Below are positions 4,830 through 63,421 of a stretch of DNA of 64,000 nucleotides, piece by piece; positions within the stretch are counted from its first letter, which is position 1, and each line of letters starts with the position of its first letter. The stretch covers positions 30,881,465 to 30,945,464 of the forward strand of contig OX419762.1 of assembly GCA_948567375.1 (NCBI GenBank), in the 5' to 3' direction. Source of the stretch: Lunularia cruciata (Eukaryota > Streptophyta > Marchantiopsida > Lunulariales > Lunulariaceae). Made by a program: the position numbers and the translations under genes. Below the pieces are notes generated by a model. It was not told the DNA's origin, did no database searches, and saw only the letters and a program-made list of their open reading frames with translations.

Positions 4830-5838
4830 TTACTTACCTCCAAAGTACTTAGGCAAAAACTTCTTTTGCACTCTCTTGAATCGAATAGAATCAAACAACA
4901 TTACCCAATCACCTTCTTTGAAAGGCTCCACCTTCTTCTTGCCTTGCCTCTTGTCATAGCTCTCCTTTTGTTTCCTTTGGGCTTGCTCCACTCGAACCAT
5001 AGCAACTGCTCTTGCCTCTTCCAACTCCATGAGTTGATCCTTCCTTGACTTCTCTGCATCACCTCCTTGTGCTTTCTTCAATCTCCTATGAATGCTTTGG
5101 AAGGTAGGAAGATCAAAGTAGATAAGTAAGGTAGACTCAATACCATACACCAATTGAAATGGAGAATGTCCGACGGAAGTCTTCATGGTTGTCCTATATT
5201 CCCACAAAACTGCATGAATCCTCTTGTCCCAATGATGTTTAGCCCCCTCCATTTTTGCATCTTTGGCCAACATCATGCACAAGGTCTGATTGGTTCTCTC
5301 TGCCAAGCCATTGGGATTTGGCTTATAGGATGTAGTTACTCTATGTGTGATAGAGAAATGTCATAGCATGGCTGTAGTAATGCTTCCTGTAAACTCTACT
5401 CCTCTATCAAAAACCAACACCAAAGGGCATCCAAACCTAGTGATAATGCGTTCATAAAGAAATCTACTCACTTCATCTTCATTCTTGTCCCTCAATGGTC
5501 TAGCCTCAACCCACTTGGTAAGGTAATTAGTAACTACCACAATGTACCAATTGTTCCTTGGGGTTCTATTGAGAGGACCTACAAAATCAATTCCCCACTT
5601 CTCAAAAGGTCCTAGCAATAGAATTGATCTAAGTGGTGGAGTGGATGGTAGACTTTCTAGCAAAAGCTTGACAAACATGACAAGTTTTGCAATAATCAAG
5701 ACAATCCTTGAAAATCCCTCTCCAATGGTAACCTGCATCTAGAATCTTGAAAGCATTCACCTTTCCTGCAAAGTGTCCTCCACATACTAAACCTTCATGA
5801 AACTCCTTTTTGAGTAGGATAGACTCTTCCTTACCCAC
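4830..5838 (-). mobile_element. Integrase region of the Tat-like element
   Basis: Three minus-strand reading segments cover the integrase. An HHCC-type zinc-binding part ends in CKTCHVCQ (about 5660-5838). The core has GIDFVGP and a VFDRG stretch (about 5361-5650). A C-terminal part holds AERTNQT and a tail rich in lysine and arginine (4830-5306). Integrase inserts the reverse-transcribed DNA into the host genome. I see no chromodomain after it. The region is described as a fossil part only. Confidence 0.88.
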
Positions 5839-5844
5839 TGCTCT

Positions 5845-8592
5845 TCAAAGTAGACCATCCGCTCCTTGGTGAAAAAGAATATCCTCCACCATTGTGTAAG
5901 GTCTAGATCTTGCTGCAAGGGCCTTCCTCTCCCTAGCATGCATCCCTTCTAGATAGTTACCTCTTGTCACAAAATCCACAATCTCCTTGTACTCCATTGG
6001 AACCTCTTGAGTGATTGAGATTGTCATGAGCTCCTCATCCGGGAAGGAATCATCCATTGGCTCATCTCCATCATGATCATAGGCTCTAGATAACAAATCA
6101 ACATTTGCATGTTTCTTTCCTGGCCTATCCTCAATGGTGTAGTCATACTCAGACAAGAGTATCATCCACCTTGCTAGTCTCCCTTCAACATTAGGCTTGT
6201 TGAAGATGTACTTCAAAGCCTTGTGATCCGTGACAATGGTGGCTTTCCCTCCAATCAAGTAGTGTCTAAACTTCTTGAGACCAAAGATCATTGCCAACCC
6301 TTCTCTCTCCGTGACAGAGTAGTTCTTCTCTGCTGAAACCATCTGCCTACTAGCATAAGCTATTGGATGATCATCCCCATCTTGGTCTAATTGACTAAGA
6401 GTGCATCCTATAGCTACATTAGAAGCATTAGTGTAGAGGATGAAAGGCTTACTCCAATCAGGTTTAGCAAGAATTGGAGCTACAACAAGGGATTGCTTGA
6501 GCTCCTCAAAAGCTTTGAGAGCCTCCTTGTCTTCCAAAATCACCATGTAATCTACACCCTTCTTCATGTAGATGGTCAATGCATAAGCCTTGTTGGAAAA
6601 TGAAAAGATGAACCTCCTATAGTACCCAACCATCCCCAAGAATTGGCGTAACTTTGTCAAGCTTGAAGGGAATGGAAGGTCTGAGATTTTCCTCACCTTC
6701 TTAGGATCAACTGCTATTCCATCCTTGGAGATGATGTGCCCCAAAAGTAGACCTTCTTCACATCCAAAAATGCACTTCTCTGGGTTGAGTGATGCATTTG
6801 CCTCATCCAAGCATTGCAAGACTTTGATTAGGTGCTCAAAGTGCTCCTCCTTGCTCCTATAGACACAAAAGTCATCAATGAAGTCTCTCACAAATTTCCC
6901 AATGAAAGGTTCAAATACCTTGTTCATGAACCGTTGGAATGTGGCTGGAGTATTGCAAAGCCCAAAAGGCATGACCTTGAAAGCGTAAGTTCTCCAAGGT
7001 GTGGTGAATGTGGTGAGTTGTTGATGCTCTGGTGCAATCTTGATTTGGTTATATCCACTATAACCATCTCCAAAACTGTACCTCTCATGACCTGCAACCT
7101 CCTCCAAGATCTCATCAATGAATGGCAATGGGTAGTAGTCCTTCTTGGTAATAGCATTGAGCTTCTTGTAATCCACACATACCCAAAGCTTGCCATTCTT
7201 TTTCTTCACAATGATAATTGGAGACACCCATTCTGAATTCTCCACCTCAAAGATAAATCCAGCCTCCTTGAGCTTATCAATCTCCTCCTTCACAACCAAA
7301 GATATTGGTGGGCTAATGCGACATTGCTTTTGGCGGATTGGTCTTGCATGTGACTCCACCTCTATCTTGTGCTCCTCCAAGGTGACTTCTTTCAAATCCT
7401 TGTAACTAAAATCAAACACATGGATGAACTTGCGGAAAATCTCTTCAAATCTCACCTTCTCCTCCTTGGTAACATTTGGGCCATACTTGAGGGTAGCTAA
7501 CCTTCTCTCTACCTCCTCAAGTGTCAATGGTGATTTGTCTGGGTCCTTCAAAACCTCTGGCTTAGGTGCAAAATCCATAGCACACAAGGGATACACATCT
7601 GAATCAGATTCAGATTCATCCTCCTCCGTGGAAGTCTCCTCCTCCATGCTTGTGTCCACACCTAAAGCTCCTTCTTCAGAATCTGATTCCCAATAATCAG
7701 AAGATGGTGTATCTGAATGTGAAGTGTTGGTGGTGTTAGTCACAGGAACTGTGACTCTATGGTTTGATGGCCCAATCCTCAAGTACCCTTTGTGCCATCG
7801 ATCAGTTGTGCATGCTGCTCTCAACCATGGCCTCCCAAGAAGTAAGTCATAGCTTGAATCCTTCAAGACTTGGAAAGTCATGAGATTTTGAACTCCCATA
7901 ACTGAAACTACCACTTTATCCATCACCCCTACTGGTTGAACTTGTTGCTTGTTTGCCATGCTCACCACAAATGTTGAAGGTCTTGAGGGTATCATACCCA
8001 ACTTCTTCATCAACCTTTCTGACATGGCATTCACTGCTGATCCTCCATCAACCAATGCATCCTTGATGTTGTGACCATTCACTCTCACATCAATCTTGGA
8101 GGCATATTCACAAGCCTCCCATGGTGCTGGCTTGGCATCCACCACCCCCATTGATATTGGAACTTTTGCCTTCTTCTTCTTCTTGCTCCTTGTAAAACTC
8201 AAACCACCTCTAAGCTCCTTTCTCAAGGTAGGGTTCAAAGCAATCAATTGGCCCATTGTGATGTTAGCCTTGTGACTACCAACATCCTCCAACACATTGT
8301 AGTTCCATTGTTGCTTTGAGATCAAGAAGTCCTCCATCTCCAACTTCTTCCTTGGAGTCTTTGTTGTTGATGGTGTTGAGATTTGAGTGCTCCTAGTAGA
8401 CATAGTAGTATCTTTGCTTGAAGTAAATCCTTGAGAAGAGTGAACATCCTTTGCAAAACGAGCTCTCTTCTTCTCTTGTGCCAAAAGCTCCAAATTAAGA
8501 CCCTTGGAGTTTGAGCACTCTCCCTTCTCGTACTTGCTCTCAACCACATCTATGGATGCTATCCCCTTACCTTTGTTGGGATTAGGAGCCAC
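5845..8592 (-). mobile_element. Protease-RT-RNase H ORF of the Tat-like element
   Basis: This long open segment of 915 codons on the minus strand carries, in order, a retropepsin-like protease (DGGSAVNAM), reverse transcriptase (SEWVSPIIIVKKKNG, YYPLPFIDEIL, MPFGLCNTPATFQ, FIDDF) and RNase H (LYTNAS, TDHKAL). An acidic linker rich in D, E and S separates protease and RT. Its order matches Ty3/gypsy pol. Its openness agrees with the low LTR divergence. Confidence 0.93.
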
Positions 8593-8754
8593 TTGGGTTT
8601 CACTACCTCCCTCTTTCCCTCTATTGGCTCCCTCATAATCCCTTCCTCCATGGTAAGTGGAATTTGGGCAATTCCTTTGGATATGGCCTCTTCCTCCACA
8701 ACCAAAACAATTTCTATCATTGAAATTGTTTGCTGGTTGGCCTCCTCTATATGG

Positions 8755-9552
8755 CTAGTTTCCATAACTCCTAGGCCCTCTCCCTACATTCTGATCCACC
8801 TCTCTCTTCTCCCATAGTTGCACCACATTGATCTTGAGATCCGCAAGTTGTTTTGTGATGGTTTGGAGTGGATCTTTTGGTGGAGGTGCAAGAACTGGAG
8901 CAACTACTACTTGTGATGCAACCCTTGTCACCAAAGTATCAGAAGTTCCACCATACTTGTAGCCTTGAGGAGGATGCACAACCTCCTTCACCACCAAATC
9001 ACTCTCATCCCCTTCCAAACTCTCCTCCATACGAATTGCGATCTTGATAGCTTCAACCTTGGAAGAAGGTTTCTCATATCTCACCTTGCTTCTAATTTTT
9101 GGTCTCAACCCTCCCACAAAATTCTTGGTGAGCATGGCCCCTATGCCAATCATTGTAGTCTCCACATCATCCCCACCCTTCCTCAACACTATGCAAAATT
9201 TGGACTCTAACTTTTCTACTCTTTCCACATAGACTCTCACTTTCTCTCCATCTCCTTGCTTGAGAAATGTAACCTCACTCATCAATCTCTCATAACTCTC
9301 ATCAAGAAGAAAGTTCTCAATGAGTGCTGAAGTCAAAGTCTCCCAAGACTCCTCTTCCCCATCTCTCCTCTCTCTCTTTTGGTATTCTGACTCATACCAT
9401 GTAAGTGATGCATCCTCAAAGAAATCTGGTAATAATGAGGCCCACTCATTCTTCCTCCTCTCATTGTTTCCTATGAAAGCTCTCTTGAAGTCTCTCACAA
9501 AGGCCTCCACATCTTCTCCATCCTTGCCAAAGAAAACCGGAAGTTTCCCCAT
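8755..9552 (-). mobile_element. Gag of the Tat-like element
   Basis: This 265-codon minus-strand ORF starts MGKLPVFFGKDGEDVEAF and continues through the typical retrotransposon gag fold (ASLTWYESE, then the YVERVEKLESKF helices). A CCHC zinc knuckle (CFGCGGRGHIQRNC) follows in the adjoining segment near 8650-8720. Gag forms the virus-like particle and binds the RNA. Confidence 0.88.
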
Positions 9553-9785
9553 CTTAACCTCTCACTATCTTTCTTTCTCTCAATTTATTTTTCTCTTTTC
9601 TTTTCTCTCACTCTATTACTAATAAAGTATATACATGACTAACACCATCTGAGTATAATCCACTCTAGGGAACACAAAAGGTTCAGGTTGCTCCAAGATT
9701 TCTATAGCAACATCAAATCCTAGAGTGCATATTAATCTAACTCTCATGGATAGTTTATCCATAAGTTGAAAGATTATCTCCATCA

Positions 9786-10259
9786 CTAATCTTGAGAACT
9801 AGCTGATGAAGGTGGTAGTATTTCTGTAGCTGTACTAAGGCTCTCTCCAAGATCCTTCACCAAAGTTTCCAAAAGTGCTTTTACTCCGTTACACTCATGT
9901 CCTCTTGGAAGTCCTTCAACTCCACAAACCTCACACAACTCCTTGGTCTTAGATCTTCTTCCTCCCAATCTTGGTGAAGAAGGTCCAACATGTAAACCCA
10001 AGTCCAGTAAGCCTCTCCTTTCTCTCAATCTCTTGCTCTCAAAGGTCAATGGACATGAACTTGCCTTATGTCCCTTCTCTCCACACAAAAAGCACTTAGA
10101 CTCACTCTTTCCTCCAAGTGGTGTAGGTTTTTGGATCCTCTCAACACTCTCTTCAAATTCTATTGTAAACTCTCTTTTCCTCAAATCCACCCCAACAATC
10201 ACCTCAAACCCTTGGGGAACCTTGCATAATCTCAATTTCCACTCTTGATGACCCTCCAT
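9786..10259 (-). mobile_element. Extra ORF with a zinc knuckle between 5' LTR and gag
   Basis: This 157-codon minus-strand ORF lies upstream of gag in the element's orientation. It contains a CCHC knuckle (CFLCGEKGHKASSC, C-x2-C-x4-H-x4-C) and a second Cys/His cluster (CEVCGVEGLPRGHEC). It ends in a serine-rich tail. Ogre/Tat elements are known to carry an additional ORF ahead of gag, but I do not recognise this protein. A nucleic-acid-binding role is an inference from the knuckle alone. Confidence 0.6.
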
Positions 10260-11118
10260 GTTCCCAAGATGAATCTAAACACTCAAACATGATTTTTGTT
10301 GATCTCAAACTCCTCATGCATGAGATCTCCACTCTGCAGAATTGACCCTTCCTCACAATGTCACTCAAATCTCCCAACCAGTATTTTAGAGTCCTCTAAA
10401 ATTTGGCACACTTGATCACAAATCTAGAGCGTCCCTCCTTGCAAAATTTCAGATCTTTTCATTGAGCCATTTGGCCTAGACACCTTTCTATTCAGCACCC
10501 ATATTTCAGATTTGGTCTAAAAACCACCCCCTTTACTTCAAAAACTCATTACTCCCTGTGCAAGAACGATCTCTCTCTAATTTTTGTGGCAGCAGGTAGA
10601 ATACAATGCACTGAATTTTCTTGGAAATTTTCAGGACAACTCTTTGAAAATTGAAGAAAATGTAAACTCTGTACAATTTTCCAGAGAGCATGCAATTGCG
10701 GGAGCACTTTATCCTATCAACTTTCAAAAATTCTAGCCCAGTGCGCATAGTAGCTCTCACAATAATTTCAAGTGTGCTAACTGAAAAATAACCCAAGGTA
10801 TCATGTGTAGAAATTTCAAGTCCAGATCTCAAACTTGGGATTTTGCCCAAAATCACCTTGATCCCAAAAATCTGCAATCCACCTCACACAATCTCTCCAA
10901 TTCCTCTCATGTGTACAAGATATACAAAATCACCACAAAGACATCATAATGAACTACAGGGTATACAAATGGATCTTGGTTCTCTAACATAAGTTCAGCT
11001 CTCTCCTCTCCTAATGTTCTCTCCAAGTGAGCTCTCATAGCCTCCTTCTGCCTAATGTAGAATTGAACGCGGAACATTATCTTACCTTCTAGAGAGGTCC
11101 CGGCAACGAAACCAAAAA
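10260..11118 (-). other. Untranslated leader and primer-binding region of the Tat-like element
   Basis: No convincing ORF lies here. Directly inside the 5' LTR, at 11099-11117 on the minus strand, the sequence TGGTTTCGTTGCCGGGACC begins with TGG. It resembles the tRNA-Asp-type primer-binding site common in Tat/Athila elements, with several differences in the first bases. The primer tRNA is therefore uncertain. Confidence 0.5.
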
Positions 11119-11810
11119 TGTGAGCCGGCATGTCTCTCACTCAGGATAAACCTCTGATGGCTATTATGGTAGCGCACCATGGACTAAGAAGGCAAGGAAC
11201 CCCAACTCCATCATACTCCTCCAAGGCTAACACTCCAAGACTCAAGACATTGCTCACTAGAGAACTCAATGAGAGAGAGATAGTTGCAAATGAAAGGATG
11301 ATGAGTACCTCCTCACCCCTTGTTTATATACTTGTGAAATAGTTACGTACCAAAGTTACTAATTATCATAGTAACTCAAGTTACTAGACTAAAAGTCAAG
11401 TAAAGTCAAAAAGTAGAAAGGAATATCCATGCACATGGGCATATTCCCCTAAGCATGTGGTCTTATCTTGACCCAACTACTAAGTCAAGGATTCCTTCAC
11501 ATGGGCTATCCTTGGACTAAAGAAGAATCCAAAACAAAAAGGCTTGTGGGCCCAAGAGTTTTCAACTCTTTCCTCAAAGCCAAACACCTAGGAATAATAC
11601 CAAGTCAACACACTAAAATCCAAAATAGTGGTGCTCATCTTTTCTACTTCCTCTAAAGTAAGGTCCCTTCTATCTTAGCTATGACTAACTTTAGCTAACC
11701 ATGACTAATATAGAACCATCCTTTATCTCTATATAAATAATATCTCTTAAGTACTTGTAATACCAAGCTAAATATCACAATACCACACACATGCACAAAT
11801 GGGTATTACA
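11119..11810 (-). repeat. 5' LTR of the Tat-like element
   Basis: This 692-bp repeat differs from 3988-4680 at about 16 positions, including one single-base length difference. In the element's orientation it is the promoter LTR. A TATATAAA-like stretch is present near 11728-11740 (ATATAAATAATA on the plus strand), but I would not assign the promoter from it. Confidence 0.9.
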
Positions 11811-12420
11811 GTACACATCAAGTCCATCCTTGGATGTGACCTGCTATGTTGTTGCATGCAACCAGAGTAGGACAATAGGCTCATCATCTTCATCTTTGGT
11901 GGACAAACCTCTTACCTAGAGAGATTCTACAACATGCTTATGATGGGATTCAAAAATTAGACCACCTTATTGTTGATAATATTTTGGATGTTGAGTGCTA
12001 ATCGTAGATGGTGGTAGTGGTTGATAGAGTCACTTATGGTAGTGGTGAACCTTGTTGGACAGCCCAAAGCCACTTTACCTATACTTATTATTTTCCCAAG
12101 CTTCTATGCTTTTAGAGAGAGAGGTCTTGGACTTCTTTGGGACTCACAATTATAATATTTGGTGAAGCCTAATGTCAATGAGAGGGAGTGGGCAATAGGT
12201 TTTTATACTAGAATTATTGATGTTACAATAGTATCAGAGGGATCCAAGTATCAAGTGTTAGGTTGGGTTATAGACCAAAATTGTTTGACCTGGATTGTGA
12301 GCCTTAGCTTGGTAGAGCAATGTAGGATGTGCTTGATAAGCATCACCACTCAAGCACTTGTGAGCTCTACGCCTATCGAGATAATTCAAGCATATGCTAA
12401 GGGTGATGAACCAAGTGGGT
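11811..12420 (+). mobile_element. DNMT-like region of copy 1, C-terminal part
   Basis: The plus-strand reading segment 12159-12422 contains NEREWAIGF followed by YQVLGWVIDQNCLTWIVS. This matches the end of C5-cytosine methyltransferases: motif IX-like ER-x-x-x-GF and motif X-like LG-x-A-x-D-x-N, where the enzyme wraps back round the S-adenosylmethionine site. The region immediately upstream, 11890-12150, aligns with 60363-60701 of copy 2. The assignment is from motif order in both copies and I could not run a profile search. Confidence 0.72.
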
Positions 12421-12889
12421 AGGGTATTCTTGGGACATAGCCAATGGCTACTAGTGAAAGTAGTCTACTTGGGATCCATCCACGTGAGTATGGTCTACTT
12501 GGGATGTAGCTAGAGGACATATGGAGCTTTTAGCCAACATAGAGGGAGTTTTCTACACTTAACTTGGCAACTCTAGTGGTTGGAGGCATGACATTATTGC
12601 TCCCAAGGGCTTAGTGTCACATCCAGTCAATATATCTTCCACTCCTACATCAATTATAGAGGATACTTGGGAGCCAGATACTGGACCCAAGCTTATAAGA
12701 GGAGAAAGATGGAGATTTTGGAGGTTCTTGAAGAGCTACACAAGTTGTTTTGCCTTTACTTGGTGCTCCAAAAGGATCTAGAATTCAGATTGTGCTTACT
12801 AGTGATACACCAGTTTTGTGACATCCCTACAATGACATGGAGAGAGTATTGATTCAAAGCCAAAGAAGAGACCTTTTTTAGGCTAATTT

Positions 12890-14080
12890 GGTGGAGATGT
12901 CACATGGAGAGTATGCTTCAACTACAATGATGCTAGTCAAGAAGGAAATGCATGGAAACTACACAAATAGGCAAATGTATGGAGATTACCATCCTATCAA
13001 CCAACAGACTAGGGCTTATTGGTATGCCATGCCTATAGGATATCTTTGATGTGATTGGGCATGCAAAGGTCTTTTCAATACTTTAGATCTTTTAGTAAGA
13101 TATCATCAATTGCCAATAAGGGAAGGGAATAAGTCCAAGGTAGCATTTTGAGCTATTGATCCTCACAGTAAGGATGTATTATATTAGTGGAGGTTCTTAC
13201 TATTTGGGTTAAAGAACTCTCTTGCCAAGTTCCAGAGGGTCATGGACAAAACCCTAGCAAGATTGGATTTTACTTGGTATTATATTGATGATATTTTGGT
13301 CTATAGCACTACTATGGAGGAGCATGACATTTGTTAGAGGTGTTTGAGATCTCATGTACATGAGAATAAGATCTCATGTACCCAAATTATATCTTGGGAA
13401 GTGTAGATTCTTCCATGAGCAAGTTGAGTATTTGGGTCACATTATCTACTCTAGGGGACTTGGTGTTCAACAGACCAAGGTAGAGGCTATTGCACATATT
13501 CCTCGGCCTATAGATGTTCACAAAGTGCAAGCATTTGTTGGGTTGGCAAACTTCTTTTGCCAATATGATAGAGGATTTCATGCCATTACCAAGGCCTTGA
13601 CCAAGCTCACACAAGAATGATGTTGGGAAGATGAGCAAGAGATAGCTTTTATTGAGCGTAAGGAGAATTGACATATGCTTCTATTCTTAGGAGACTAATC
13701 AGAGGATGATCATTCCAAGTTCACACTAATTGGAGTATGTTGGGGCTTTGAGTAATACTCACTCACCCAACATGATGATGAGGAGAAGGAGTTTATGGTG
13801 GCCTATGCTAGTTGCTCTAACAATTCAATGGAAGTGAAGTATAGTTTATATGAGGGAGAGTGTTTGGTAGCAATATGGGCAATTGCACATTTGTGATGTT
13901 ACCTATTTGGTAACCCCTTCACTCTCATCACCGATCATTAACCACCAAAGTGGTTGATAGAGTCTCACAAGCTTGCACAATGGACTTTAATTTTATTAGT
14001 ATGATTTCATGGTTATTCACCAACCTAGAGTGGTGAACCATGATGCAAATGAGCTGAGTAGAAACCCATGTCCCAGCCAG
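12890..14080 (+). mobile_element. RT and RNase H region of copy 1
   Basis: Ty3/gypsy RT wording is visible: YHPINQQTRAYWYAMP near 12985-13030, LLFGLKNSLAKFQRVMDK near 13200-13250, and the catalytic YIDDILVYS near 13280-13305. The RT thumb and connection (KLYLGKCRFF, EYLGHIIYS, FVGLANFF) follow at 13380-13560. RNase H remnants (SVKYSLYEGECLVAIWAI, ITDH) lie around 13830-13940. Confidence 0.85.
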
Positions 14081-14479
14081 CAAGATCAGACCAGAGCATG
14101 TTGGCATGATGAGACAAATGAGGAGATGGTGTTAGATTGGCATGCATCGACCTTTCTATGTATATTTTTTGAGGCTTTGGTAGTATCTCTCTCAATGCAT
14201 ACAGGAAGAGTTATTGAGGTCACAAATCCAAAGGGTAGAGATATTGGTATAGTTTAGTAAGACATACATGATGATGTCTTAGTGATGGATTATCTTTGCA
14301 TTGTTGTTGTGTGTAGCAGAATTGGTGCCAAGGAGAAAGACTATGTTCTTCAACAAGCCATGCAATTTAGATTGGAAGTCAGGCACCTTCTTTGTGCATG
14401 GGAAGATGGTAGAGTGCGAGTAGTACCACTTCCATCTTAGAGACCATAGTTGGTCCATCATACTCATGAAAGCTAGGAC

Positions 14480-15300
14480 ATTTTGGAGTAAAGCTACATA
14501 TAGCTTACTTCAAAGTCATTATTGGTGATGCGGTATACAGACCAATGTATAGTAGGTTGTTGCCAGATGTGTGGTTTGTGATCAAGTTAGAGCATCATTC
14601 AATGCTCCTACACCATAGTTACACCCATTACCTATCATGGGATTGGGTAGCCATTGGAGTTTGGACTTGCTAGACCTTTACCATTGATTGTGAGACATCA
14701 TTGATAAGTTTTGGTTATGGTGGAACACTTCTCCAAGTGGATTGAGTTGGTGGCACTTCTTGACAAGTCTAGTGAAGGGAAGGTTTTCTCATTTTTGGAT
14801 TGAGTGCTTAATCATTTTGGTGCACCAATTGAGGTTTTGACTAATCAAGGTTTAGAGTTCTTGAAGAAGTTTGTGACAAGGCATTGATTGATCATCATAC
14901 TACCTCCCCGAGATCACTCTAAGGCAAATGGTTTAGCAAAGAGAGTGGTTTAGATGATGAAGAGAGAAGATTGGGATCTCTAGTTACCTTGGTTGGCCAT
15001 GGGCTATGGATTTAATTGGCAAAACTCCTTAGCATCCTTCTCTCTTTACTTTCTACTCTATGGATGAGACCCAAATGTGCCTATAAACATTCATTGAGAT
15101 GCTACTATAGTTTTGGACTTGGATGATCAAGACATATGGGTTAGTGCATGTTCTCAATGAGTAAAGATCGTTTGGAGCATGATGTCGATGACCTTTGAGA
15201 ACTTGGCAATTGCTCAACATAAGGATACCTTATGTTATGCTACTATTCAAGGAGGAGGTTATAGATCCTTGATCCATCAATTTCATCCAAGTGACTATGT
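14480..15300 (+). mobile_element. Integrase region of copy 1
   Basis: This region carries the integrase zinc-binding end (CQMCGL and CDQVRASFNAPT near 14550-14610) followed by LHPLPIMGLGSHWSLDL-like core sequence. Catalytic-core remnants continue to about 15000 and a C-terminal part to about 15300. The same blocks occur on the minus strand at 56500-58022 in copy 2. Confidence 0.75.
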
Positions 15301-15504
15301 ATATATATAGTTAATAGCATTGACAACACTTGATGTTACTACAAGTCACACTATCTTGAAAGTGCGTGAGGTTTTGCCTTTTGGAGTCCTTATGTTGGAA
15401 GGACATGATAGTGTTGTTTGAAAGGATCATATGCGCAATTGTGTGCCATGCCACCTCCCAAACATTGATGGCACTATGGACCCAAGCTTGGCACTTGTAG
15501 GTGC

Positions 15505-15655
15505 AGGCTTGCGGTGTATGTTATGTGGCTCTTTTGGTAGAGCTACTACTATGTTGATGTATGATAGTTGTTTGAGAGGATGGCATATGGCATGTTTTAC
15601 TCCTCCACTCATGATGGTTGCTCAATGACAATGGTTATGCCCTAGATGTACTTGA
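15505..15655 (+). mobile_element. PHD-finger-like block after integrase, copy 1
   Basis: One plus-strand frame shows RCMLCGSFGRATTMLMYDSC, then LRGWHMACFTPPL, then WLCPRC at 15632-15649. Spacing and wording follow the C4-H-C3 PHD finger, including the usual D-x-C, GWH, C-x-x-PPL and W-x-C-P-x-C pattern. PHD fingers read histone H3 tails, most often methylated or unmodified lysine 4. The position, after integrase and just before the polypurine tract, is where chromoviruses carry a chromodomain, so a targeting role is a reasonable inference. The block is also seen in copy 2 (56140-56285). Confidence 0.78.
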
Positions 15656-15823
15656 TCTATAACTAGTTTAACCTTTATATGGTGTAGATTGCAGATATGC
15701 AACTAACAATGGGGCTCGATAGCACCCGGCCTCTTGATCTTTGCCATCATTGGGTACACCATACACTTGTAATAGATGGCTATCTAGAGTTAAAGAGACC
15801 TAACTGCCAACTAGGGGGGGCAT

Positions 15824-16437
15824 TGTGATACTTTAGAGTGCATGTATGACTTATGTGTGATTTTTGCTTCTATAGTGTATGATGTTGACAATGATGTATG
15901 TTGTGTAGCAATGTATATATGCATACAAATTATCATGATGTTTGTAGTGCCAAAGCTAGGTTGCTTGGTTGTTGGAGTGGTGGTGTTTGTAATCATAGGT
16001 ATTTTGGTAGTTCCTCATGGACTGCTTGTTGATGGTTCAAATTTATGTGAGGGCTACCATCAATGGTGCCATTAGGGCTAGAGATCAAGGTCGAGTAGAG
16101 GATTATACCTTCAAAAGTGCAGCTTCAGAGAGCTCACTTCTTTTATGTTGAGCCTTTGAGTTCTTGGCTATGGTGGATAGAGGTCATCAAACGTCACCTG
16201 AAGTCTCTTAGCTAGAGTGAGTGTGGCTTGATTGTAATTTGTGCCTAATTGTTGGTAGATTATTGAGTGAAGGATCAAGTACAAATCTGATTTGAGTGTG
16301 ATTTGAGTGGAAGAGTGAACTGATTATTGTGGCTTTTAACAGTTCATGTATGACTTATGTGTGAGTTATGATTCTATTGTGTATGCAATGATGTATGTTG
16401 TGTAGTGATGTATATACCCATGAGACACATACACATG
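15824..16437 (+). repeat. Probable 3' LTR of DNMT-PHD copy 1
   Basis: The LTR begins TGTGATACTTTAGAG directly after the polypurine tract and aligns with 55281-55956 (reverse strand). From 16328 about 95 bp repeat the LTR's own first 95 bp (TGTGGC, then TTCATGTATGACTTATG). The second copy does the same, so I place the end near 16437, with an uncertainty of tens of bases. Confidence 0.65.
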
Positions 16438-44825: not shown

Positions 44826-44844
44826 AAGGGTCTTGTATGCTACC

Positions 44845-46140: not shown

Positions 46141-46152
46141 CCTATTGGGAGC

Positions 46153-49740: not shown

Positions 49741-49744
49741 AATA

Positions 49745-55280: not shown

Positions 55281-55956
55281 TGTCATACATATATACATCA
55301 TTACACAACATACCTCCCTATCAACATCATACACTATAGAAGCACAACTCACACATAAGTCATACATGAACTCTAAAGTGCCACAATAATCAATTAATTC
55401 TTCCACTCAAATCACACTCAAATCACACTCAAATCAAATTGGTACTCAATCCTTCTCTTAATACTCTACCAACAATTGTGTATTGATTATAGTCAAATCA
55501 CACCCACTCTAGCTAAGAGACTCCAAGTGACGTTTACTTGCCTCTATTCACCATAGCCAGGAACTCAAAGGCTCAACATCAAAGAAGTGAGCTCTCTGGA
55601 GCTGCACTTTGAAGGTATACCTCTTTGCTTGACCTAGATCTCTAGTCTTAATTGTGCCACTAACAACACATCTGAGGGTGCAAACAATGCAAGTGACGAT
55701 GGGTCTCACCATGTGATTAGTAGCCCTAATATAAAATCAGACCACCAACAAGTAGTCCATGAGTAACTACCAAAATACCTATGATTATCAACACTACTAC
55801 TCTAGCATCCAAGAAACCTAGCTTTGGCATTACAAATGTTGTGATAGTTGTTGTGCATATATACATCACTACACAACATACATCATTGTCAACATAATAC
55901 ACTATAGAAGCACAACTCACACATAAGTCATACATGAACTTTACTAAAGTGTCACA
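55281..55956 (-). repeat. 3' LTR of DNMT-PHD copy 2
   Basis: On the minus strand the LTR starts TGTGACACTTTAG next to a purine tract (CTAGGGAGG). As in copy 1, the first stretch (TGTGGCACTTTAGAGTTCATGTATGAC) recurs from 55385 downward, giving an LTR that begins and ends with the same roughly 100-bp sequence. The end at 55281 is inferred from alignment with copy 1. Confidence 0.65.
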
Positions 55957-56139
55957 ATTGCCTCCCTAGTTGGCAGTTAGGTCCCTCTAACTCCATATAG
56001 CCATCTACTCCTAGTATGTGTTATACTCTATGATTATACTCTATGATGGGCAAAGATTAAGAGGTTGGGTGCTATCAAGCCCTATTGTTAGTTGCCTATT
56101 TGCAATCTTTATCACATAAAAGGTAAACTAGCTATAGGT

Positions 56140-56285
56140 CAAGTACATTTAGGACATAATTATTATCCTTGAGGAAGCACCATGAGGGGAAGAGTCAAAC
56201 ATACCATATGTCATTTTCTCAAACAGCTATCGCACACCAACATAGTAGTAGCTCCACCAGAAGAGCTGCATAATATACACTGTAA
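56140..56285 (-). mobile_element. PHD-finger-like block, copy 2
   Basis: The minus strand keeps the C-x2-C start, the MLVCDSC block and the final C-P-x-C of a PHD finger at the position, after integrase and before the polypurine tract, seen in copy 1. Agreement between two diverged copies argues that the finger belonged to the element. Confidence 0.72.
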
Positions 56286-57054
56286 GCCTACACATACAAG
56301 TGCTAAACTTGGGTCCATAATGCCATCAATGTTTGGGAGGTGGCATAGTGCACAATTGTGCACATGATTTTCTTAAACAACAACATCATGTCCTTCCAAC
56401 ATGAGGATCCCAAAAGGCAAAACCCCATGCACTCTCAAGATAGTGTGGCTTGTAGTAACATCAAGTGTTGTTGGTGTAGTCTACTGTAGATATACATAAT
56501 CACCTAGATGAAATTGACAAGTGAAGGATATATAACCTTCTCTTCAAATAGTAGCATAGCGTAAGATATCCCTATGTTGAGTAATTGCCAAGTTCACAAA
56601 GACCATCTGTATCACTCTTTAAAAGATCTCTGCCTATTGAGAACATGCACTCACCCATATATTTAGATCATCTAAGTCCAAAACTACAATAGCATATTGA
56701 CAAATAGCTATAGGTAAATTTGGATCTTGTCTATTGAGTAGAAAGTAAGGAAAGAAGGATGCTAAGGATGCTTGTTGGCTGAACTGATACCCCATGGCCA
56801 ACCAAGGTAACTAGAGATCCCAATCTCTCCAGTGGCCTCTTTGCAAACCATACTTATGCAATCCTCTCTTCATCATCTAAACCACTCTCTCTGCTAAGCC
56901 ATCTGCCTCAAGGTGATCTCATGAGGTAGTACAATGATTTATCAAGGCCTTGTCACACAAGACCTAATACTCCCCCAAGAACTTTGTATCAATCAAAGCC
57001 TTAATTGGTGCACCAAAATGATTAAGAACCTGATCCAAGAACAAGTAGGCCATT

Positions 57055-57791
57055 TGTAATATTTTGAGGATAGGAGAGAAACACAAAAGAGAAAGGACAA
57101 GTTCACACTCAATCTCTGATGCCCCAAAGGAGCACCTTGGCTTTATTATATAGCAAAGCAAAGAAACTCCACAGAAGCATAACCCATGGATCAGATATAT
57201 AGATTGGTGACATGTCATTGATCTCCACCCTCCGATTAGATGCATGCATGGGTGTCATGTCAGATCTGGTCCTCTCTAGTTGGTCAAACCAATGTTGACT
57301 GGAGGAAATCTTTAGAGAATCTTCTTGTAGGAACCTCACAATTGTATGGGTGAGGTACCATTAGAAAGCTCTTGATAAGACAAATAGGGGGGGAGGGAAG
57401 GCCAGCCTTTTCTCCTCTTGGGTCCAAATCTGCACATTTTTTAGGCCTATTTCTTCCATTCATGACCTCTAAATTGCCTCAAGACTTTTGGCATATTTTA
57501 TTTTTTGCTCTATTAATAGAAGTGATCTTTTGGTGATACCTCTTTTTAATTTATTTATTTCATCATGTGTAACATCCTTCCAGATATTACCAAACTAAAT
57601 TTTACCTATAGATCATATATTTAACTATTGGTTCTAAGGTTTTTGAATGTTTGATTTCTGCCCTATTAGTAGAAGTACTCTTTTGGTAATACCTCTATCT
57701 GATCTATTTATTCCATCATGTATAAAATCCTTCTAGATATTACAAAACCAAATTTCACCTCTAGATCATATGTCTAGCTATCAATATTACA
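57055..57791 (-). mobile_element. Solo LTR inside integrase of DNMT-PHD copy 2
   Basis: This 737-bp insertion has perfect 9-bp inverted ends (TGTAATATT ... AATATTACA) and breaks the otherwise collinear alignment of copy 2 with copy 1 integrase. Flanking 5-mers CCATT and TCATC may be an eroded target-site duplication. The same family is at 54190-54770 and 54907-55230. Within its distal part a sub-block (TTTTGGTGATACCTCT to CTTCTAGATATTAC) occurs twice, near 57530 and 57680. Strand is assigned from the TATA-like box and is tentative. Confidence 0.8.
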
Positions 57792-59650
57792 TCATCCCTT
57801 CACCAGACTTGTCAAGAAGTGCCACCAACTCAATCTACTTGGAGAAGTGCTCCACCATAACCAATGATGTCTCATAATCAATGGTAAAGGTCCAAAAAAG
57901 TCCAAACTCCAATAGTAACCCAATCCTATGATAGGTAATGGATGTAATTGTGGAGTAGGGGATGCTCTAACTTGGTCACAAACCAAACATCTAGTAACAA
58001 ACTTTTGTACATTGGTATGCATACCATGCTACCAATAATGACTCTCAAGTAAGCTATATGTATGCTTTACTCCAAAATTTCCTAGCTCTTCATGAGCATG
58101 ATGGACCAATTGTGGTCCCTAAGATGGAAATGGTACTACTCACACTCTACCATCCTCACATACATGAAGAAGGTGTCTACTTCTAATCTAAACTGCTTGG
58201 CTTGTTGAAGAACATGGTCTCTTCTTGGCACCAATTGTGCTACCCACAACACCAATGAAAAGATAATCTATCACTAAGACATCATCATGAATGTCTTGCT
58301 GAACTCTACCAATATCTCCACATTTTGGATCAATAACTCTTCTTGTATGAGATATTACTAAAGCCTCAAAAATATACATAAAAAGGTATATGCATGCCAA
58401 CCTGGCACCATCTCCTCATCTATCTCACCATGTCAATGTGCTCCGGTCTGATCTTGTTGGTTGGGACATTAGATGGGTTTCTACTCAACCTATCTAAAGT
58501 CATGGTTCACCACTCCAAATCTGTGAATAACCATGAAATCATATTCTTGTAAAATTAGAGCCCATCATGCAAGCTTCCCTGAAAGCTTGTCAAACTCCAT
58601 CAACCACTTTAGTGGTTGATGATCACTAATGAGAATGAAAATGTTACCAAATATGTAACACTAGAAATGTACTATTGCCCATACTGCTACCAAATACTCT
58701 CCCTTATATGAACTATATTTTACCTTTGTTGAATTGTTGGAGCAACTAGCTTAGGCCACCACAAAATCCTTTCTCTTATCATCATGTTGGATGAGCACTG
58801 CTCCAAGCCCCAATGTACTCCAATCAATATGAACCTAGAATGGTCTTCCTCTAATTGGTCTCTTAAGAACAGGGACAAATGTCAACCTCTCCTTGAGCTT
58901 ATAAAAGCTCTCTCTTGCTCATCTCCTCAACACCACTCCTATGTAGGCTTGGTTAGCTTTGTAAAGGCCTTGGCAATGGCACTAACTCCACTAATATAAT
59001 GGCAATAGAAGTTTGCCAACCCAAGAAATGCTTGCACTCTACTCACATCTGTAGGCCAAGGAATACATGCAATAGCCTCTACCTTGGTCTATTGATTGGA
59101 AAGTCCTTTAGGGTAGATAGTGTGACCCAAATACTCAACCTACTTGTGGAAGAATCTACACTTCCCAAGATGTAATTTGAATCTATGAGATCTCAATCTC
59201 TCAAATACCCAACAACAAATGTCTCTCATAATCCTCCATAGTAGTGTTATAGACCACAATGTCATCAATATAGCACCAAGCAAAATCCAATCCTATTAGG
59301 ATCATATCCATGATCCTTTGGAAATTAAGTAGGAGTATTTTTTAATCCAAATAGTAAGAACTTCCATCAATATAATACATCCTTGTTGTGAAGATCAATA
59401 GCCCAAAATGCTATCTTGGACTTATCCTCCTCCTTGATTGGCAATTGATGATGTCCTACTTAAAGATCCAAAGTGCTAAAGACCTTTGCATGCCCAATCA
59501 TATCAAAGATCTCCTTTGGTGTAGGCATGGCATACCAATCAACCCTAGTTTGTCAATTGATAGGATGGTAATCTCCAAATATCTACCTATTTGTGTAGTT
59601 GTTATGCATATTCTTCTTGGCTAGCATCACTATAGCTAAAGCATACTCTC
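57792..59650 (-). mobile_element. Integrase start, RNase H and RT regions of copy 2
   Basis: The integrase zinc end (CLVCDQVRASPTPQLHPLP) and core start are at 57792-58022. RNase H and connection remnants lie at about 58190-58740. RT runs at about 58780-59650, with the conserved lysine-rich and FxxLxxFxxYxR-like sequence complementary to 58960-59240. Matches to copy 1 are collinear. Confidence 0.78.
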
Positions 59651-60049
59651 GTTGTGAAATCTCCACAAAACCAACATCAAAAAGGTCTCTACTTTGGCTA
59701 TGGATCCATGCTCTCTCCATGTCACTATATTTGTAGGGATGTCAAAAAGTTGGTGTATCACTATTAAGCTCAATTCAAATACCAAATCCCTTAAGAGCAT
59801 CTAAATCCTTTATATTGAAGGCAAAACAACTCATATAGCTCCTCAAGAACCTCCAAACTCTTTGTCTTTCTTCTCTTGTAAGCTTAGGTCCAATATTTGG
59901 CTCCCAAGTATCCTATGAAACTGATGTAGGAGTGGAAGATATATTGACTGGCTGCTATATTAGGCCCTTGGAAGTAGTAGCATCATGCTCCTAACCATTA
60001 GTGTCCCAACCTCAATGTGGAGAACTCCCTTTGCTCTAATTGCAAGCTC

Positions 60050-61185
60050 CATACGTCCTCTAGTTTCATCCCAAGTAGGCCACATTTACCTAGATGGACC
60101 CCAAGTAGACCACTCTCACTAGTAGCTATTGATTGTGTCCCAAGAATATCCTACCCACTTGGTTCATTGTTCTTAGCATATGCATGAATCATCTTGATAT
60201 TCATAAATATTTCAATTTTTTGAGTAGTGATGCCTATCAAGCATATCCTACCTTGCTCTGCCAAGCCAAGGCTCACAATCTAGCTCAAACAGTTTAGGTC
60301 CATAGCCTGATCTAACACTTGACATTTGAATGCCTTTGACATTCCTATAACAATGGTAATACCTATATAAAAACCATCACTTGCTCCCTCTCATCGATAT
60401 TGGGCTCTATTAATTGTTGTAATTGTGAGTCCCAAACAAACCTAAGATCTCCCTCTTGAAGAGCATGGGAGCTTAGGAAACTCATAATTGTGAGTAATAC
60501 AACTTTGGGTTGTCCAGCAAGGTTCACCATTGCCATATGTGACCTATCAGCCACTACCACCATCCAAAGTTGGCACCCAACATCCAAAATGTCATCAACA
60601 GTAAGGTGGTCTAGTCTTTGAATCCCATTAAGCACTCTCAAGAACCTCTTTAGGTAAGATGTTTGTCCACCAAAGATAAAGACATCCCATTTTGGCTGCA
60701 TCCAACAACACTATAGACCCCATCTAAGAATGGACCCAATGTGTACTCACCACCACCTAGGTGCAAGAATCACCCATCAAAGGAACATTCTCCAAAATAT
60801 AAGTTAGAGAAACAGATTGAGAACTTGAAGATGTCATTGTATAAGTAACGATCCCAAAACACACCAAAATGGAGATCTTGGAGGCCTTGACCTTGGCCAT
60901 CATAGGTATGTCCTTGACATGGCCATCCAAAAATCACCAAATGAATAGGAACATGTCTCTCCAAATCTTGTGCTCCCAACAAGGAAATGTTTGTTGGTAG
61001 GGTCTTCTAATAATCCCTACTACTGATATTGGCAATAACTCAAGATACCTATAGGCCAAGTGTACCACATAATATAGAGAGACTTTCCTAATAGTCTCAT
61101 CTCTTTCCATATATAAGTACCTCTTGTAGAGTTGCCTATAGTACCATAGCTAGTCTAGTGTTAATCCCACCGAACAACTCCAATA
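60050..61185 (-). mobile_element. C5-cytosine DNA methyltransferase-like region of copy 2
   Basis: On the minus strand, in order: ELFGGINTRLAMV at about 61180-61142 (motif I, S-adenosylmethionine binding, FGG-x-x-T-x-L); GPIHLVI-like strand and FGWPCQGHT at about 60930-60905 (motif IV with the catalytic Pro-Cys-Gln); a YFGEC segment near 60785 at the place of the ENV motif (VI); HLTVDDILDVG, then VVVVADRSHMAMVN and FVWDSQLQQLIEPNIDEREQ within 60363-60701, placed like the target-recognition part and motif IX. A C-terminal LNCLxxIVSLGLAEQ segment near 60250 fits motif X. This gives five conserved motifs in the right order between protease and RT. Gypsy and DIRS-type elements with captured DNMTs are known from charophytes and dinoflagellates. 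It is described as a fossil only. Confidence 0.8.
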
Positions 61186-61879
61186 AATATACTCCCCGTA
61201 TTGGATGTTGCCAAGCAATGAGTGTGGTATCCAAAGTGGACAAGGTAATAGACTCCGGAGGTTCATCCTCACACTAGTCTCCTAGTGATACAAAGGTTTC
61301 ACTCCAAGCTTGTTGCACCAATTGATTTGCATGTTGTTGCAATGCCTCCTTAGAACTCCACAATAAAACATCTGAGGTGGATGGAGCAATCCCACTCAAA
61401 CTCCAAATACGAGTGATCTCCTCTAGTATTGGAGTATCCTTTGCACGGGCATTCCCCTCCAATAAGTCACTAGGCCAAGTAATGAAACCATTAAAAGCTA
61501 AAACTGATGCTATGGTCCTTGATTATAGTGAGCCAAGACTACCACTACTAAAGCTTTTTGGTAGATAATATACCCGTCCCTCACCTAACCACCAACTTTT
61601 TCTACAGGAGGTTGTCTCCTCCCAATAGTCAATATTGAAACCTATGAGGTATAACACTATTCCACCAACTAGCACATCATATGACTCTACTATTGTCACA
61701 ATGGCTTTAGCTCTCACCATTGAGCTATCATTCAAATGACCAAGCTGAATCTAGACAATGAGCTCTCCACTTGTGATGTACTATATAGAACCACCCTAGA
61801 GATGTTTAGATCTGAAATGGACATCTCTTCATATTGGTCTTTGGTAGCTCTAGACCGACAATTGCAACCTTTCCCAACA

Positions 61880-63250
61880 TAAGGAGCTATGATCCAAAGT
61901 CTAATAAGACCTTCTATGGTGTATAGATCTTTCTTGAAGGTCCCACCAAATGGAAAATCCTCCTTTGGTTATTTAATAGGACAAATCTAAAAGTGAATTG
62001 CACTCGCTCAAAGGTAGGTCTAGTTGGTAACTCCTCCAAGCTAGCTACTATTGCTTGCCATAAACCATTGGTCATTGAGTAGATCACATGCTCCTCAACA
62101 AAGTTAGCTCCACTATCAATCACCTTTGCTCTAGTAGTAGGAACCACATCATCTCTACTCTCACAAGTGTAGCAGCCAACCAAAACACTAGAGTTGGGTC
62201 AACTTTCAATGTAAACATATCACTAGCTAAGAATAAAGGGAAGCATATATTCAATTAAGCCGCCCCTAACATCATACTAGACTCAATCTATATAGTAGTA
62301 GGTGGCTGACTAGCATCTAGTCTATCATGCACTCCATCACCACCTACTACACCTACACTAGGATGTCTAGGAGCCATGGATGTTATCTATAATGCTTTAG
62401 AGAGTGTGAAAGACTAGGGAGTCAGACCTATCTACTAACCTCTCTCTTTATAGATCCACCTCCACTAATGCTCCTCTAGGCACTCTAGAGCACATATTGC
62501 ACTCCTAGTTATTTCAATAGATGCATCTACTTGTGCTACTCCACACATAAAGTCCAAGATGTCTCTATCACCAACATAAGAGGTGGAAGTCTCAACACCC
62601 AAATCTAATCTCCTTTGAGTTATGGCCATGCTAGCCAATCTTTGCTCCAACTGCCTAATCTAAGTAACCATGGCTATATCAAAAGCAATGGTACGTACTA
62701 CATCCTTGCCAGGTGTGGATCCTCTACCACCACCTTGTCTTTCATGACTTGGAGTTCCTCTACCACTTTCCATAGTAGCCTTACCACTCTATAACTCCGA
62801 GTGAAGGTCAAAGCATCAATCATCAGTGTGACCAAATTTGTGGTAATGGTCACATTGTCTCTATGGTGGTTGTGATGTACCAGAGGTATCATGTTCATTG
62901 CCTTGAATGCACTCTCTCTTGTGATGTGGTCCACCACAAGTCTAACAAGCAACACTACCACTCACTAGCTACTATTGATCTAAAAATGAAGGTAAGGGTC
63001 TAGCTACACTAGAACCCCACTTGCTTTATAAGATTTGAGCTATTCACTTTGTCCTTGAAAGCCAATATGGCATGGTGTACTTTGCTACACTCTAAAAGAA
63101 GTAATATTTAGGGATGAGGTCTCCCCACCAAATTTAAATGTCATCACTTTCTCCTCTACCATGTTGAGCTCAATGCACTCAGCCAAACTAAAGACCACTA
63201 ACTAAGTAGGTGAAGTAGTCTATAACAACATAGCATCATGTACTTTCCGT
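61880..63250 (-). mobile_element. Gag and protease regions of copy 2
   Basis: Minus strand: gag remnants (ALAEC-type and matrix-like wording) with a Cys/His knuckle area near 62930-62890 (CGGPHHKRECIQG-like), a gag tail at 62465-62650 (MEQRLASMAITQRRLDLGVE), and a conserved stretch ahead of protease at 61914-62183 (DDVVPTTRAKVIDSGANFVEE, LEELPTRPTFERVQF) that copy 1 shares at 2570-2740. The gag repeat unit that is triplicated in copy 1 occurs once here. Confidence 0.72.
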
Positions 63251-63270
63251 CACAACTCCTTGTCTAGGAT

Positions 63271-63419: not shown

Positions 63420-63421
63420 CT

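What the first reader, a model, noticed from the sequence alone, without database searches (positions are those of the whole stretch)
60050..61185. A C5-cytosine DNA methyltransferase carried inside a plant Ty3/gypsy retrotransposon
Between protease and RT the minus strand shows C5-methyltransferase motifs in the correct order: FGG-x-x-T-x-L (I), GWPCQG (IV), an ENV-like site (VI), an ER-x-x-x-x-F region (IX) and a terminal LG/LN-C-L-x-x-I-V-S region (X). The same region is found in the second copy at 3530-3987 and 11811-12420. Captured DNMTs were reported in gypsy elements of charophyte algae and in dinoflagellate elements, where self-methylation was proposed. I know of no description in a land plant. 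An element that methylates its own DNA would change the usual host-silencing picture. What I see is motifs and order; activity and novelty are inference.
Basis: partly seen in the sequence, partly recalled or inferred. Interest (0 to 1): 0.93.

Follow-up and report, generated by a model that had tools for sequence, protein, structure and literature searches.

The report
Liverwort retrotransposon carrying a DNA methyltransferase
A high-copy jumping gene in what looks like a liverwort carries its own DNMT3-type DNA-methylating enzyme and a histone-reading finger; it extends to land plants a kind of element so far described in algae, and makes 'why would a transposon methylate DNA?' testable there.

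Summary
Both window copies (A: 3528-3987 + 11811-12320; B: 61192-60253, minus) are decayed remnants of a cytosine-C5 methyltransferase domain between protease and reverse transcriptase. Alone they give no PF00145 hit. The host genome (565.8 Mb) holds copies with open frames that match DNMT3A best and fold as DNMT3 (pLDDT 91; top Foldseek hit DNMT3A). 20 of 20 sampled young RT copies have it upstream. Substitutions suggest purifying selection while the family multiplied. New here: (1) a land-plant host, liverwort-like by plastid genes; named relatives in Marchantia, Calypogeia, Sphagnum and one green alga; (2) a PHD finger ending the integrase; (3) UAG-CAG after the DNMT in 29 of 29 copies (27 fit CARYYA), so the DNMT sits on the Gag side of a likely readthrough site; (4) DIRS-like split repeats A-coding-B-A-B, yet 4-bp target duplications (14 of 16). 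Closest known: KnitGypsy-Dnmt3 of Klebsormidium. Self-methylation of cDNA is likely but undemonstrated. New variant of a known kind.

The parts
55281..63270 (-). Copy B of the element, decayed; 5' part cut off at 63270 by an LTR piece of another family
60253..61192 (-). Copy B: DNMT3-class methyltransferase remnant, motifs I to X, three frames
   Evidence: limits interpolated from the tblastn pieces
61448..61967 (-). Copy B: aspartic protease-like region
   Evidence: limits interpolated; no Pfam hit here; PF13650 precomputed in relatives P0018, P0031, P0034, P0039
59955..59957 (-). Copy B: TAG stop followed by CAGCCA, between DNMT and RT
58367..59738 (-). Copy B: reverse transcriptase and RNase H
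   Evidence: RT_RNaseH E 9.3e-24; RVT_1 only 15-16 bits, below cut-off; tblastn
56142..58382 (-). Copy B: integrase, with about 745 bases of unaligned insert at 57051-57795
   Evidence: Integrase_H2C2 E 1.9e-10
56145..56279 (-). Copy B: PHD finger at the end of the polyprotein
   Evidence: PF00628 26.2 bits, cut-off 24
55281..55958 (-). Copy B: 3' end repeats B1 (55958-55849), A2 (55844-55416), B2 (55387-55281)
1..16423 (+). Copy A of the element, decayed, split by a nested gypsy element; its 5' end lies outside the window
3528..3987 (+). Copy A: methyltransferase, first part (motifs I to VI)
11811..12320 (+). Copy A: methyltransferase, second part (motifs VIII to X)
2761..3273 (+). Copy A: aspartic protease-like region
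   Evidence: limits interpolated
12828..14066 (+). Copy A: reverse transcriptase and RNase H
   Evidence: RVT_1 E 2.3e-10, RT_RNaseH E 1.9e-16
14067..15514 (+). Copy A: integrase
   Evidence: H2C2 E 0.0017 and rve E 0.002, both below their cut-offs; tblastn
15515..15649 (+). Copy A: PHD finger
   Evidence: PF00628 26.1 bits, cut-off 24
15822..16423 (+). Copy A: 3' end repeats B1 (15822-15923), A2 (15941-16317), B2 (16326-16423)
3988..11810 (-). Nested gypsy element, no methyltransferase seen, inserted in copy A's DNMT; LTRs 3988-4680 and 11119-11810 (677 of 692 bases alike)

Best explanation
The window holds two dead copies of a high-copy Ty3/gypsy-type retroelement family of a liverwort. Shown by sequence: gag (two zinc-knuckle-like motifs), a protease-like region and a DNMT3-class methyltransferase share one reading frame that ends in UAG-CAG in every genomic copy compared; RT, RNase H, a DDE integrase and a terminal PHD finger follow in the same frame. 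Inferred: ribosomes mostly stop at the UAG, so methyltransferase is made at Gag-like amounts and packed into the particle, and a minority read through to make RT-integrase-PHD. Inside the particle or preintegration complex the enzyme methylates CG in new cDNA before or at integration, and the PHD finger helps the integrase dock on nucleosomes, where chromoviruses use a chromodomain. The likely benefit is that cDNA arrives looking like host DNA, or enters chromatin it seeds itself. Shares: identity and architecture about 0.95; readthrough about 0.8; cDNA methylation as main role about 0.45.
For: Identity: DNMT3A is the best PDB match by sequence (E 1.2e-10), by profile (92 bits; DRM2 34, HaeIII 34) and by fold. 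PF00145 passes in 5 of 5 ORFs, but these came from a PF00145 search, so that is not independent. Regular part: 20 of 20 RT-picked copies have it (18 of the 20 are not on the PF00145 list), with the catalytic Cys in 19 (one Tyr) and the ENV Glu in 19 (one outside the alignment) of 20. Selection: differences shared by both window copies against the family majority have N/S ratio 0.209 in the DNMT, private ones 0.844 (Fisher p 2e-7). Readthrough: TAG in 29 of 29, CARYYA fits 27 of 29; CARYYA defined in PMC5382211 (passages). PHD: PF00628 E 6e-11, same frame as the integrase in 4 of 4 copies looked at. Activity precedent: SymbioDIRS-Dnmt3 domains methylate CG in yeast (PMC5890265 section 10).
Against: No activity, expression, methylome or protein data were available. 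The nearest described relative, KnitGypsy-Dnmt3, gave no methylation in yeast (called inconclusive there). C-to-T loss in the copies is strong at CG and CHG (26 copies: 0.085, 0.062, against CHH 0.012); CHG is not what a CG enzyme writes, so host silencing acts on these copies anyway. The nested gypsy element without DNMT is as CpG-poor as the window copies (0.12 against 0.09 and 0.11), so no special methylation of this family shows. Two stops are among the changes shared by both window copies in the DNMT, so 'shared' is not purely pre-insertion. Low N/S does not prove constraint on catalysis. In three relatives the DNMT lies after RT (P0054, P0055, P0065), so Gag-side expression is not general.
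Confidence: 0.6

Rival explanations
1. The methyltransferase acts on host chromatin at or around the insertion site, together with the PHD finger, rather than on free cDNA: the element writes a chromatin state it can later live in.
For: PHD finger at the integrase end in both window copies and 4 of 4 genomic copies looked at, and in 3 of 66 relatives, many of which end before that point. Its nearest solved relatives are PHD fingers of chromatin proteins such as CHD4, KMT2D, KDM5.
Against: DNMT and integrase-PHD are on opposite sides of the conserved stop, so most DNMT would not be joined to the PHD finger. No insertion-site or methylome data.
Confidence: 0.2
2. The domain is kept for a non-catalytic use, such as binding nucleic acid in the particle, or methylates RNA.
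For: KnitGypsy-Dnmt3 was inactive on DNA in yeast, inconclusively; Asn of ENV is His in 4 of the 20 rows aligned.
Against: Catalytic Cys and ENV Glu are invariant in the 20 rows aligned (19 relatives and one host copy) and kept in 19 of 20 RT-picked copies each; DNMT3, not DNMT2, is the best match.
Confidence: 0.12
3. A recent capture of a host DNMT gene or a chimeric insertion, not a stable part of the element.
For: The host has exons that look like its own DNMT3- and DRM-type genes.
Against: The best piece of each of five host loci is only 27-35% identical, against 75% for a Marchantia polyprotein; 20 of 20 RT-picked copies carry it; one well-supported clade of bryophyte elements (100/99).
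Confidence: 0.02
4. Chance motif order in decayed sequence.
For: No PF00145 hit in isolated window frames.
Against: Both copies align along an open-frame relative that passes PF00145.
Confidence: 0.01

Closest known systems
KnitGypsy-Dnmt3 of Klebsormidium nitens (de Mendoza et al. 2018, PMC5890265; abstract and sections 6, 9, 10, 11 read)
   Same: Gypsy-type coding domains with a non-rearranged DNMT3-class domain in the polyprotein; intronless; multi-copy; purifying selection; repeats ordered as in DIRS elements (their Fig. 4 legend).
   Different: Land-plant host; DNMT upstream of a conserved UAG, in the Gag-side frame; PHD finger on the integrase; 4-bp target duplications documented. Whether the Klebsormidium element has a PHD finger, a readthrough stop or target duplications could not be seen here.
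SymbioDIRS-Dnmt3 and SymbioLINE-Dnmt of dinoflagellates (same paper)
   Same: Retroelement-borne DNMT; SymbioDIRS is DNMT3-class with A-coding-B-A-B repeats, and its domain methylated CG in yeast.
   Different: DIRS tyrosine recombinase or LINE machinery, not RT-RNase H-DDE integrase.
Plant chromoviruses (Ty3/gypsy with a chromodomain; recalled, and abstracts in the listing)
   Same: A chromatin-reading type of module at the integrase C-terminus.
   Different: PHD finger instead of a chromodomain; split repeats; DNMT.
Type I stop-codon readthrough (UAG-CARYYA) of tobamoviruses (PMC5382211, passages); SIRE1 of soybean as an LTR-element precedent (recalled)
   Same: UAG followed by CARYYA between two in-frame ORFs.
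   Different: Efficiency not measured; here it parts gag-protease-DNMT from RT-integrase-PHD.

Membership tests
C5-cytosine methyltransferase, DNMT3 class | PF00145 above cut-off | tested here: met
   5 of 5 genomic ORFs, taken from a PF00145 search; relatives P0045 and P0060; PF00145 precomputed for most of the 66 hits. Window pieces themselves 0 of 14 (five, nine)
C5-cytosine methyltransferase, DNMT3 class | Catalytic PCQ/PCN Cys and ENV Glu | tested here: met
   20 of 20 aligned rows; 19 of 20 RT-picked copies each
C5-cytosine methyltransferase, DNMT3 class | Closest to DNMT3 in sequence and fold, motif order I to X not rearranged | tested here: met
C5-cytosine methyltransferase, DNMT3 class | Methylates CG DNA | not testable with these tools
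   no assay
DRM (plant rearranged DNMT3) | Motifs VI-X placed before I-IV | tested here: not met
   order I, IV, VI, VIII, IX, X
Ty3/gypsy LTR retrotransposon | gag, PR, RT, RNase H, DDE integrase in this order | tested here: met
   RT, RNase H, H2C2, rve by Pfam; gag and PR by eye and by relatives' names and domains; DNMT lies between PR and RT
Ty3/gypsy LTR retrotransposon | 4-6 bp target-site duplication | tested here: met
   4 bp in 14 of 16 copies with both ends, and 3 of 3 read by eye
Ty3/gypsy LTR retrotransposon | Same full LTR at both ends | tested here: not met
   right end B-A-B in 20 of 20; left end A in 16 of 20, B in 0 of 20
DIRS element | Tyrosine recombinase in place of DDE integrase, no target duplication | tested here: not met
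   H2C2 and rve found, no phage-integrase domain listed in the ORF scanned; duplications present
KnitGypsy-Dnmt3 kind | Gypsy polyprotein with DNMT3 plus A-coding-B-A-B repeats | tested here: met
   description in PMC5890265 section 9
KnitGypsy-Dnmt3 kind | Sequence kinship to the Klebsormidium copies | not testable with these tools
   no Klebsormidium protein is named among the 66 hits
Chromovirus | Chromodomain at integrase end | tested here: not met
   PHD finger there; no chromodomain listed at E 0.01
Type I readthrough | UAG-CARYYA between in-frame ORFs | tested here: met
   27 of 29 copies; UAG-CAG in 29 of 29
Type I readthrough | Readthrough product made | not testable with these tools
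   no reporter or proteome

The most novel reading that the evidence does not exclude
An ancient green-lineage clade of retroelements carries both a writer (DNMT3) and a reader (PHD) of chromatin marks. The writer is made at Gag level upstream of a readthrough stop and methylates the element's own cDNA; integration uses a circle-like intermediate opened inside the LTR (GACA-NN-TGTC junction), which would explain A-coding-B-A-B ends with integrase-type 4-bp duplications. The clade survived the move to land and still drives genome growth in liverworts.
Probability: 0.3. Interest if true: 0.88.

Novelty: new variant of a known kind. Interest (0 to 1): 0.75.

Why it matters
DNA methylation is the main way plants silence transposons, so a successful plant transposon that carries a de novo type of DNA methyltransferase, apparently under purifying selection, is a paradox. 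Relatives lie in the genome of Marchantia polymorpha, a genetic model, under names such as hypothetical protein, so the question can be tested directly there. The element also brings together three features worth testing: a PHD finger in the chromodomain position, a conserved and likely leaky stop, and split terminal repeats used by a DDE integrase. Some relatives bear the database name DNA (cytosine-5-)-methyltransferase (for example P0021), so they can be mistaken for host genes.

Tried and rejected
Pfam and NCBIfam on isolated or X-at-stop frames of the window: no methyltransferase hit. Protein searches with window frames: none at E 0.01 among 322 candidates or E 10 with 1 candidate; only a copy from the host genome worked. 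IMG/VR scan: no relative. Motif IX-X piece against phages, plasmids and the PDB: nothing relevant. The motif-IV piece against phages gave mostly annotated methyltransferases (13 of the 15 rows listed, of 41 records, those 13 at E 0.1-5), and 2 of 5 plasmid records: suggestive only. I considered a DIRS element (rejected: rve integrase and target duplications), a DRM or CMT origin (rejected: motif order and best match), recent host-gene capture (rejected), and self-methylation read from the CpG footprint (rejected as proof: CHG is lost nearly as much, and the neighbour without DNMT looks alike). Genome-wide copy number by the A repeat was not obtained; one search lists 150 RT matches, the cap, at 99-100% amino-acid identity over 154 residues. 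A tree with canonical plant DNMT3 was not made.

Full report
Observation. On the minus strand of copy B the motifs run LELFGG (I), GWPCQG (IV), ILENV (VI), LLDAAKMG..WWTN (VIII), ERE (IX) and a terminal motif X, spread over three frames. Copy A holds the same stretch on the plus strand, cut at 3987/11811 by a nested gypsy element; the two copies are 81.2% and 80.8% identical in DNA on either side of the cut. Both are dead: no piece and no single frame of the stretch reaches PF00145 (five of the ten pieces lie in it; nine frames). On the window alone the finding would have stayed at motif level.

The family. The window lies on a 565.8-Mb genome; eight contigs of 60-85 Mb were seen and make up 558 Mb of it. 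PF00145 gave 123 scored matches there, all over the cut-off, most at the motif IV block (the tool says counts are lower bounds). Of the 30 loci cut out, 25 align to one reference ORF1 of 1428 aa; the other five look by eye like host DNMT3-, DRM- and CMT-type exons. The reference reads gag with two zinc-knuckle-like motifs (by eye; a Marchantia relative is named CCHC-type), a protease-like region and the methyltransferase, then a stop, then RT, RNase H, integrase and a PHD finger. The protease gave no Pfam hit in this family; PF13650 is precomputed in four relatives. Both window copies map along the reference.

Which methyltransferase. Five of five ORFs pass PF00145 (E 5e-9 to 3.5e-8), but they were found by that profile. 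Independently, one copy finds DNMT3A in the PDB at 1.2e-10, HaeIII at 7e-4, DRM2 only at 0.1. A profile of 20 rows gives DNMT3A 92 bits, DRM2 34 (an entry named only DNA methyltransferase, 4onj, recalled as tobacco DRM, 45), HaeIII 34, HhaI 32, DNMT2 29. AlphaFold gives pLDDT 91 and pTM 0.90; all 50 rows Foldseek listed are DNMT3 entries, the top one with TM 0.84 by target and 0.67 by model length. Motif order is not rearranged. Catalytic Cys and ENV Glu are invariant in the 20 rows aligned, one of them the host copy. In copies picked by RT and not by the DNMT, Cys is kept in 19 and Glu in 19 of 20, and 15 of 20 have no stop in the stretch read.

A regular part. A search with 154 residues of the RT listed 150 matches, the cap, all 99-100% identical, 50 of them 100%, the query's own place included. 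I took every seventh row from 1 to 134 (20 of the 150) and fetched 351 bases where the DNMT should lie: 20 of 20 encode it; two of the 20 are also on the list. These are the youngest copies; whether old copies or sister families lack the domain was not tested, except that the nested gypsy element in the window shows none.

Selection. Across 26 copies pooled dN/dS is 0.41 in the DNMT, 0.38 in the protease region and 0.50 in the gag zinc-knuckle region; these pools mix pre- and post-insertion change. Within the family, variants in one copy, two copies and three or more have N/S 0.74, 0.47 and 0.35 in the DNMT. Both window copies against the family majority: changes shared by A and B (mostly before their insertion) have N/S 0.209 in the DNMT, private ones (after) 0.844, 55S/35N against 54S/139N, Fisher p 2e-7; protease 0.253 and 1.022, p 0.0009; gag region 0.383 and 0.702, p 0.13. 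Two stops are among the shared changes in the DNMT, so parallel C-to-T events are included; they would raise N/S. Between this host and Marchantia protein P0001 the DNMT (75%) is kept better than gag or protease (58% each).

The stop. After the DNMT an in-frame TAG is present in 29 of 29 genomic copies compared, always followed by CAG; 27 of 29 fit CARYYA. Copy B keeps TAG CAGCCA although decayed; copy A has lost it. The type I readthrough signal is UAG-CARYYA (PMC5382211, passages). Changes within 60 codons on either side are too few to test coding constraint, but the residues after the stop resemble Marchantia and Sphagnum relatives at the RT start (by eye). Readthrough is therefore inferred, not shown. 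If right, methyltransferase is made in Gag-like amounts.

PHD finger. PF00628 passes its cut-off in both window copies (26.1 and 26.2 bits) and at E 6e-11 in a genomic copy. It ends the polyprotein in 4 of 4 copies looked at, in one of them past a stop. Three of 66 relatives show it (P0053 Marchantia, P0060, P0066); many of the others end before that point, and P0045, which reaches it, has a cysteine-rich end without a PF00628 hit. Its nearest solved relatives are PHD fingers of CHD4, KMT2D/C, PHF12, DPF3 and KDM5. Which histone state it reads is untested.

Ends. Three copies first showed A(449)-coding-B(about 107)-A-B, with 4-bp duplications CATA, TTTA, ACTC read by eye; in the fourth (C8) no left A was found. 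I then fetched the ends of 20 copies chosen by hand down the list: B-A-B on the right in 20 of 20; A on the left in 16 (4 not found in the 1201 bases fetched); B on the left in 0; a perfect 4-bp duplication in 14 of the 16. Right ends of both window copies are B-A-B. A1 and A2 of one copy are more alike (0.9715, n 16) than A1 and A2 of different copies (0.9548, n 304; 15 of 16 above their own between-copy mean); B likewise 0.989 (n 20) against 0.982 (n 380). So the repeats are renewed at each round, as LTRs are. The B1-A2 junction reads GACA-NN-TGTC in 14 of 20 and differs by one or two bases in 6; AGCTAGGGGGGCGA, polypurine-like, stands before B1 in 12 of 20. The integrated form is what one would get by opening a two-LTR circle, LTR being B-NN-A, at that inner junction; this is my inference. 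The same repeat order is described for KnitGypsy-Dnmt3.

Host and relatives. The plastid contig C74 (112.5 kb) carries chlN (637 bits) and, between rpl21 and ccsA, cysT (400 bits). chlN excludes flowering plants and plastid cysT points to liverworts or hornworts (both recalled). Size and a Ty3/Gypsy-driven doubling fit Lunularia cruciata (580 Mb, PMC9985172, passages): likely, not proven. Of 7996 candidates scored, 66 proteins matched the DNMT: 19 named Marchantia polymorpha, 2 Calypogeia fissa, 2 Sphagnum, 1 Monoraphidium neglectum, 42 without organism. By blastp 60 of 66 hold at least one other element part. In a tree of 58 rows (56 relatives with at least 250 aligned residues and two host copies, one of them short; 10 of the 66 left out) the bryophyte rows and three unnamed ones form one clade (100/99); Sphagnum falls beside Marchantia among the liverworts with weak support (92/80).

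Methylation footprint. Against the family majority, C-to-T at CG, CHG, CHH is 0.487, 0.413, 0.150 in copy A and 0.432, 0.447, 0.141 in copy B (A-to-G and T-to-C 0.04-0.06), and 0.085, 0.062, 0.012 over 26 copies (0.005-0.006). So copies have very likely been methylated at CG and CHG in the germ line. CHG is the mark of host chromomethylases (recalled; for bryophytes also PMC9516144, passage), so the host silences this family; the footprint neither supports nor excludes self-methylation.

Print. De Mendoza 2018 (PMC5890265; abstract and sections 6, 9, 10, 11 read) has the charophyte and dinoflagellate cases and found KnitGypsy-Dnmt3 inactive, inconclusively, in yeast. PMC12344493 (passages) cites streptophytes and dinoflagellates, naming Copia and DIRS. 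[quoted passage not shown] The passages seen of PMC6453930, PMC9516144, PMC13182070 and PMC9985172 mention no such element. No listed row of the ten searches is a land-plant report; rows beyond the listings, subscription journals and repeat databases were not seen.

Verdict. Real, DNMT3-class, a regular part of a land-plant gypsy family with signs of past purifying selection; a new variant of the Klebsormidium kind.

Noticed in passing
window 3988-11810: Nested gypsy element in copy A's methyltransferase, minus strand, with a 969-aa open frame at 5845-8754 and LTRs 97.8% alike (677 of 692).
   Followed up: partly
window 863-1679: Three copies of a 224-base unit about 296 bases apart, over the gag zinc-knuckle part of copy A; the same part of the reference gag matches there more than once.
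   Followed up: partly
window 63271-63931: LTR piece of the nested element's family at the 5' cut end of copy B; its first 150 bases match in the inverted sense.
   Followed up: no
window 57051-57795: About 745 bases inside copy B's integrase that do not align to the family: an insertion or rearrangement.
   Followed up: no
window 44539-50035: Possibly another LTR element: 300-base direct repeats 99% alike about 5.2 kb apart, with gypsy pol hits at 46966-49123.
   Followed up: no
P0054, P0055, P0065 (relatives): In these polyproteins the DNMT lies after RT-RNase H instead of before RT, so the domain has moved or was captured more than once.
   Followed up: partly
tree: Sphagnum element DNMTs fall among liverwort ones, beside Marchantia (92/80): horizontal transfer or lineage sorting; support is weak.
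   Followed up: no
L009, L010, L011, L012, L023 (host genome): Exons of what look by eye like the host's own DNMT3-, DRM- and CMT-type genes.
   Followed up: partly
L056, about 1-4500 (plastid contig): A long run of N at the start of the fetched plastid stretch.
   Followed up: no
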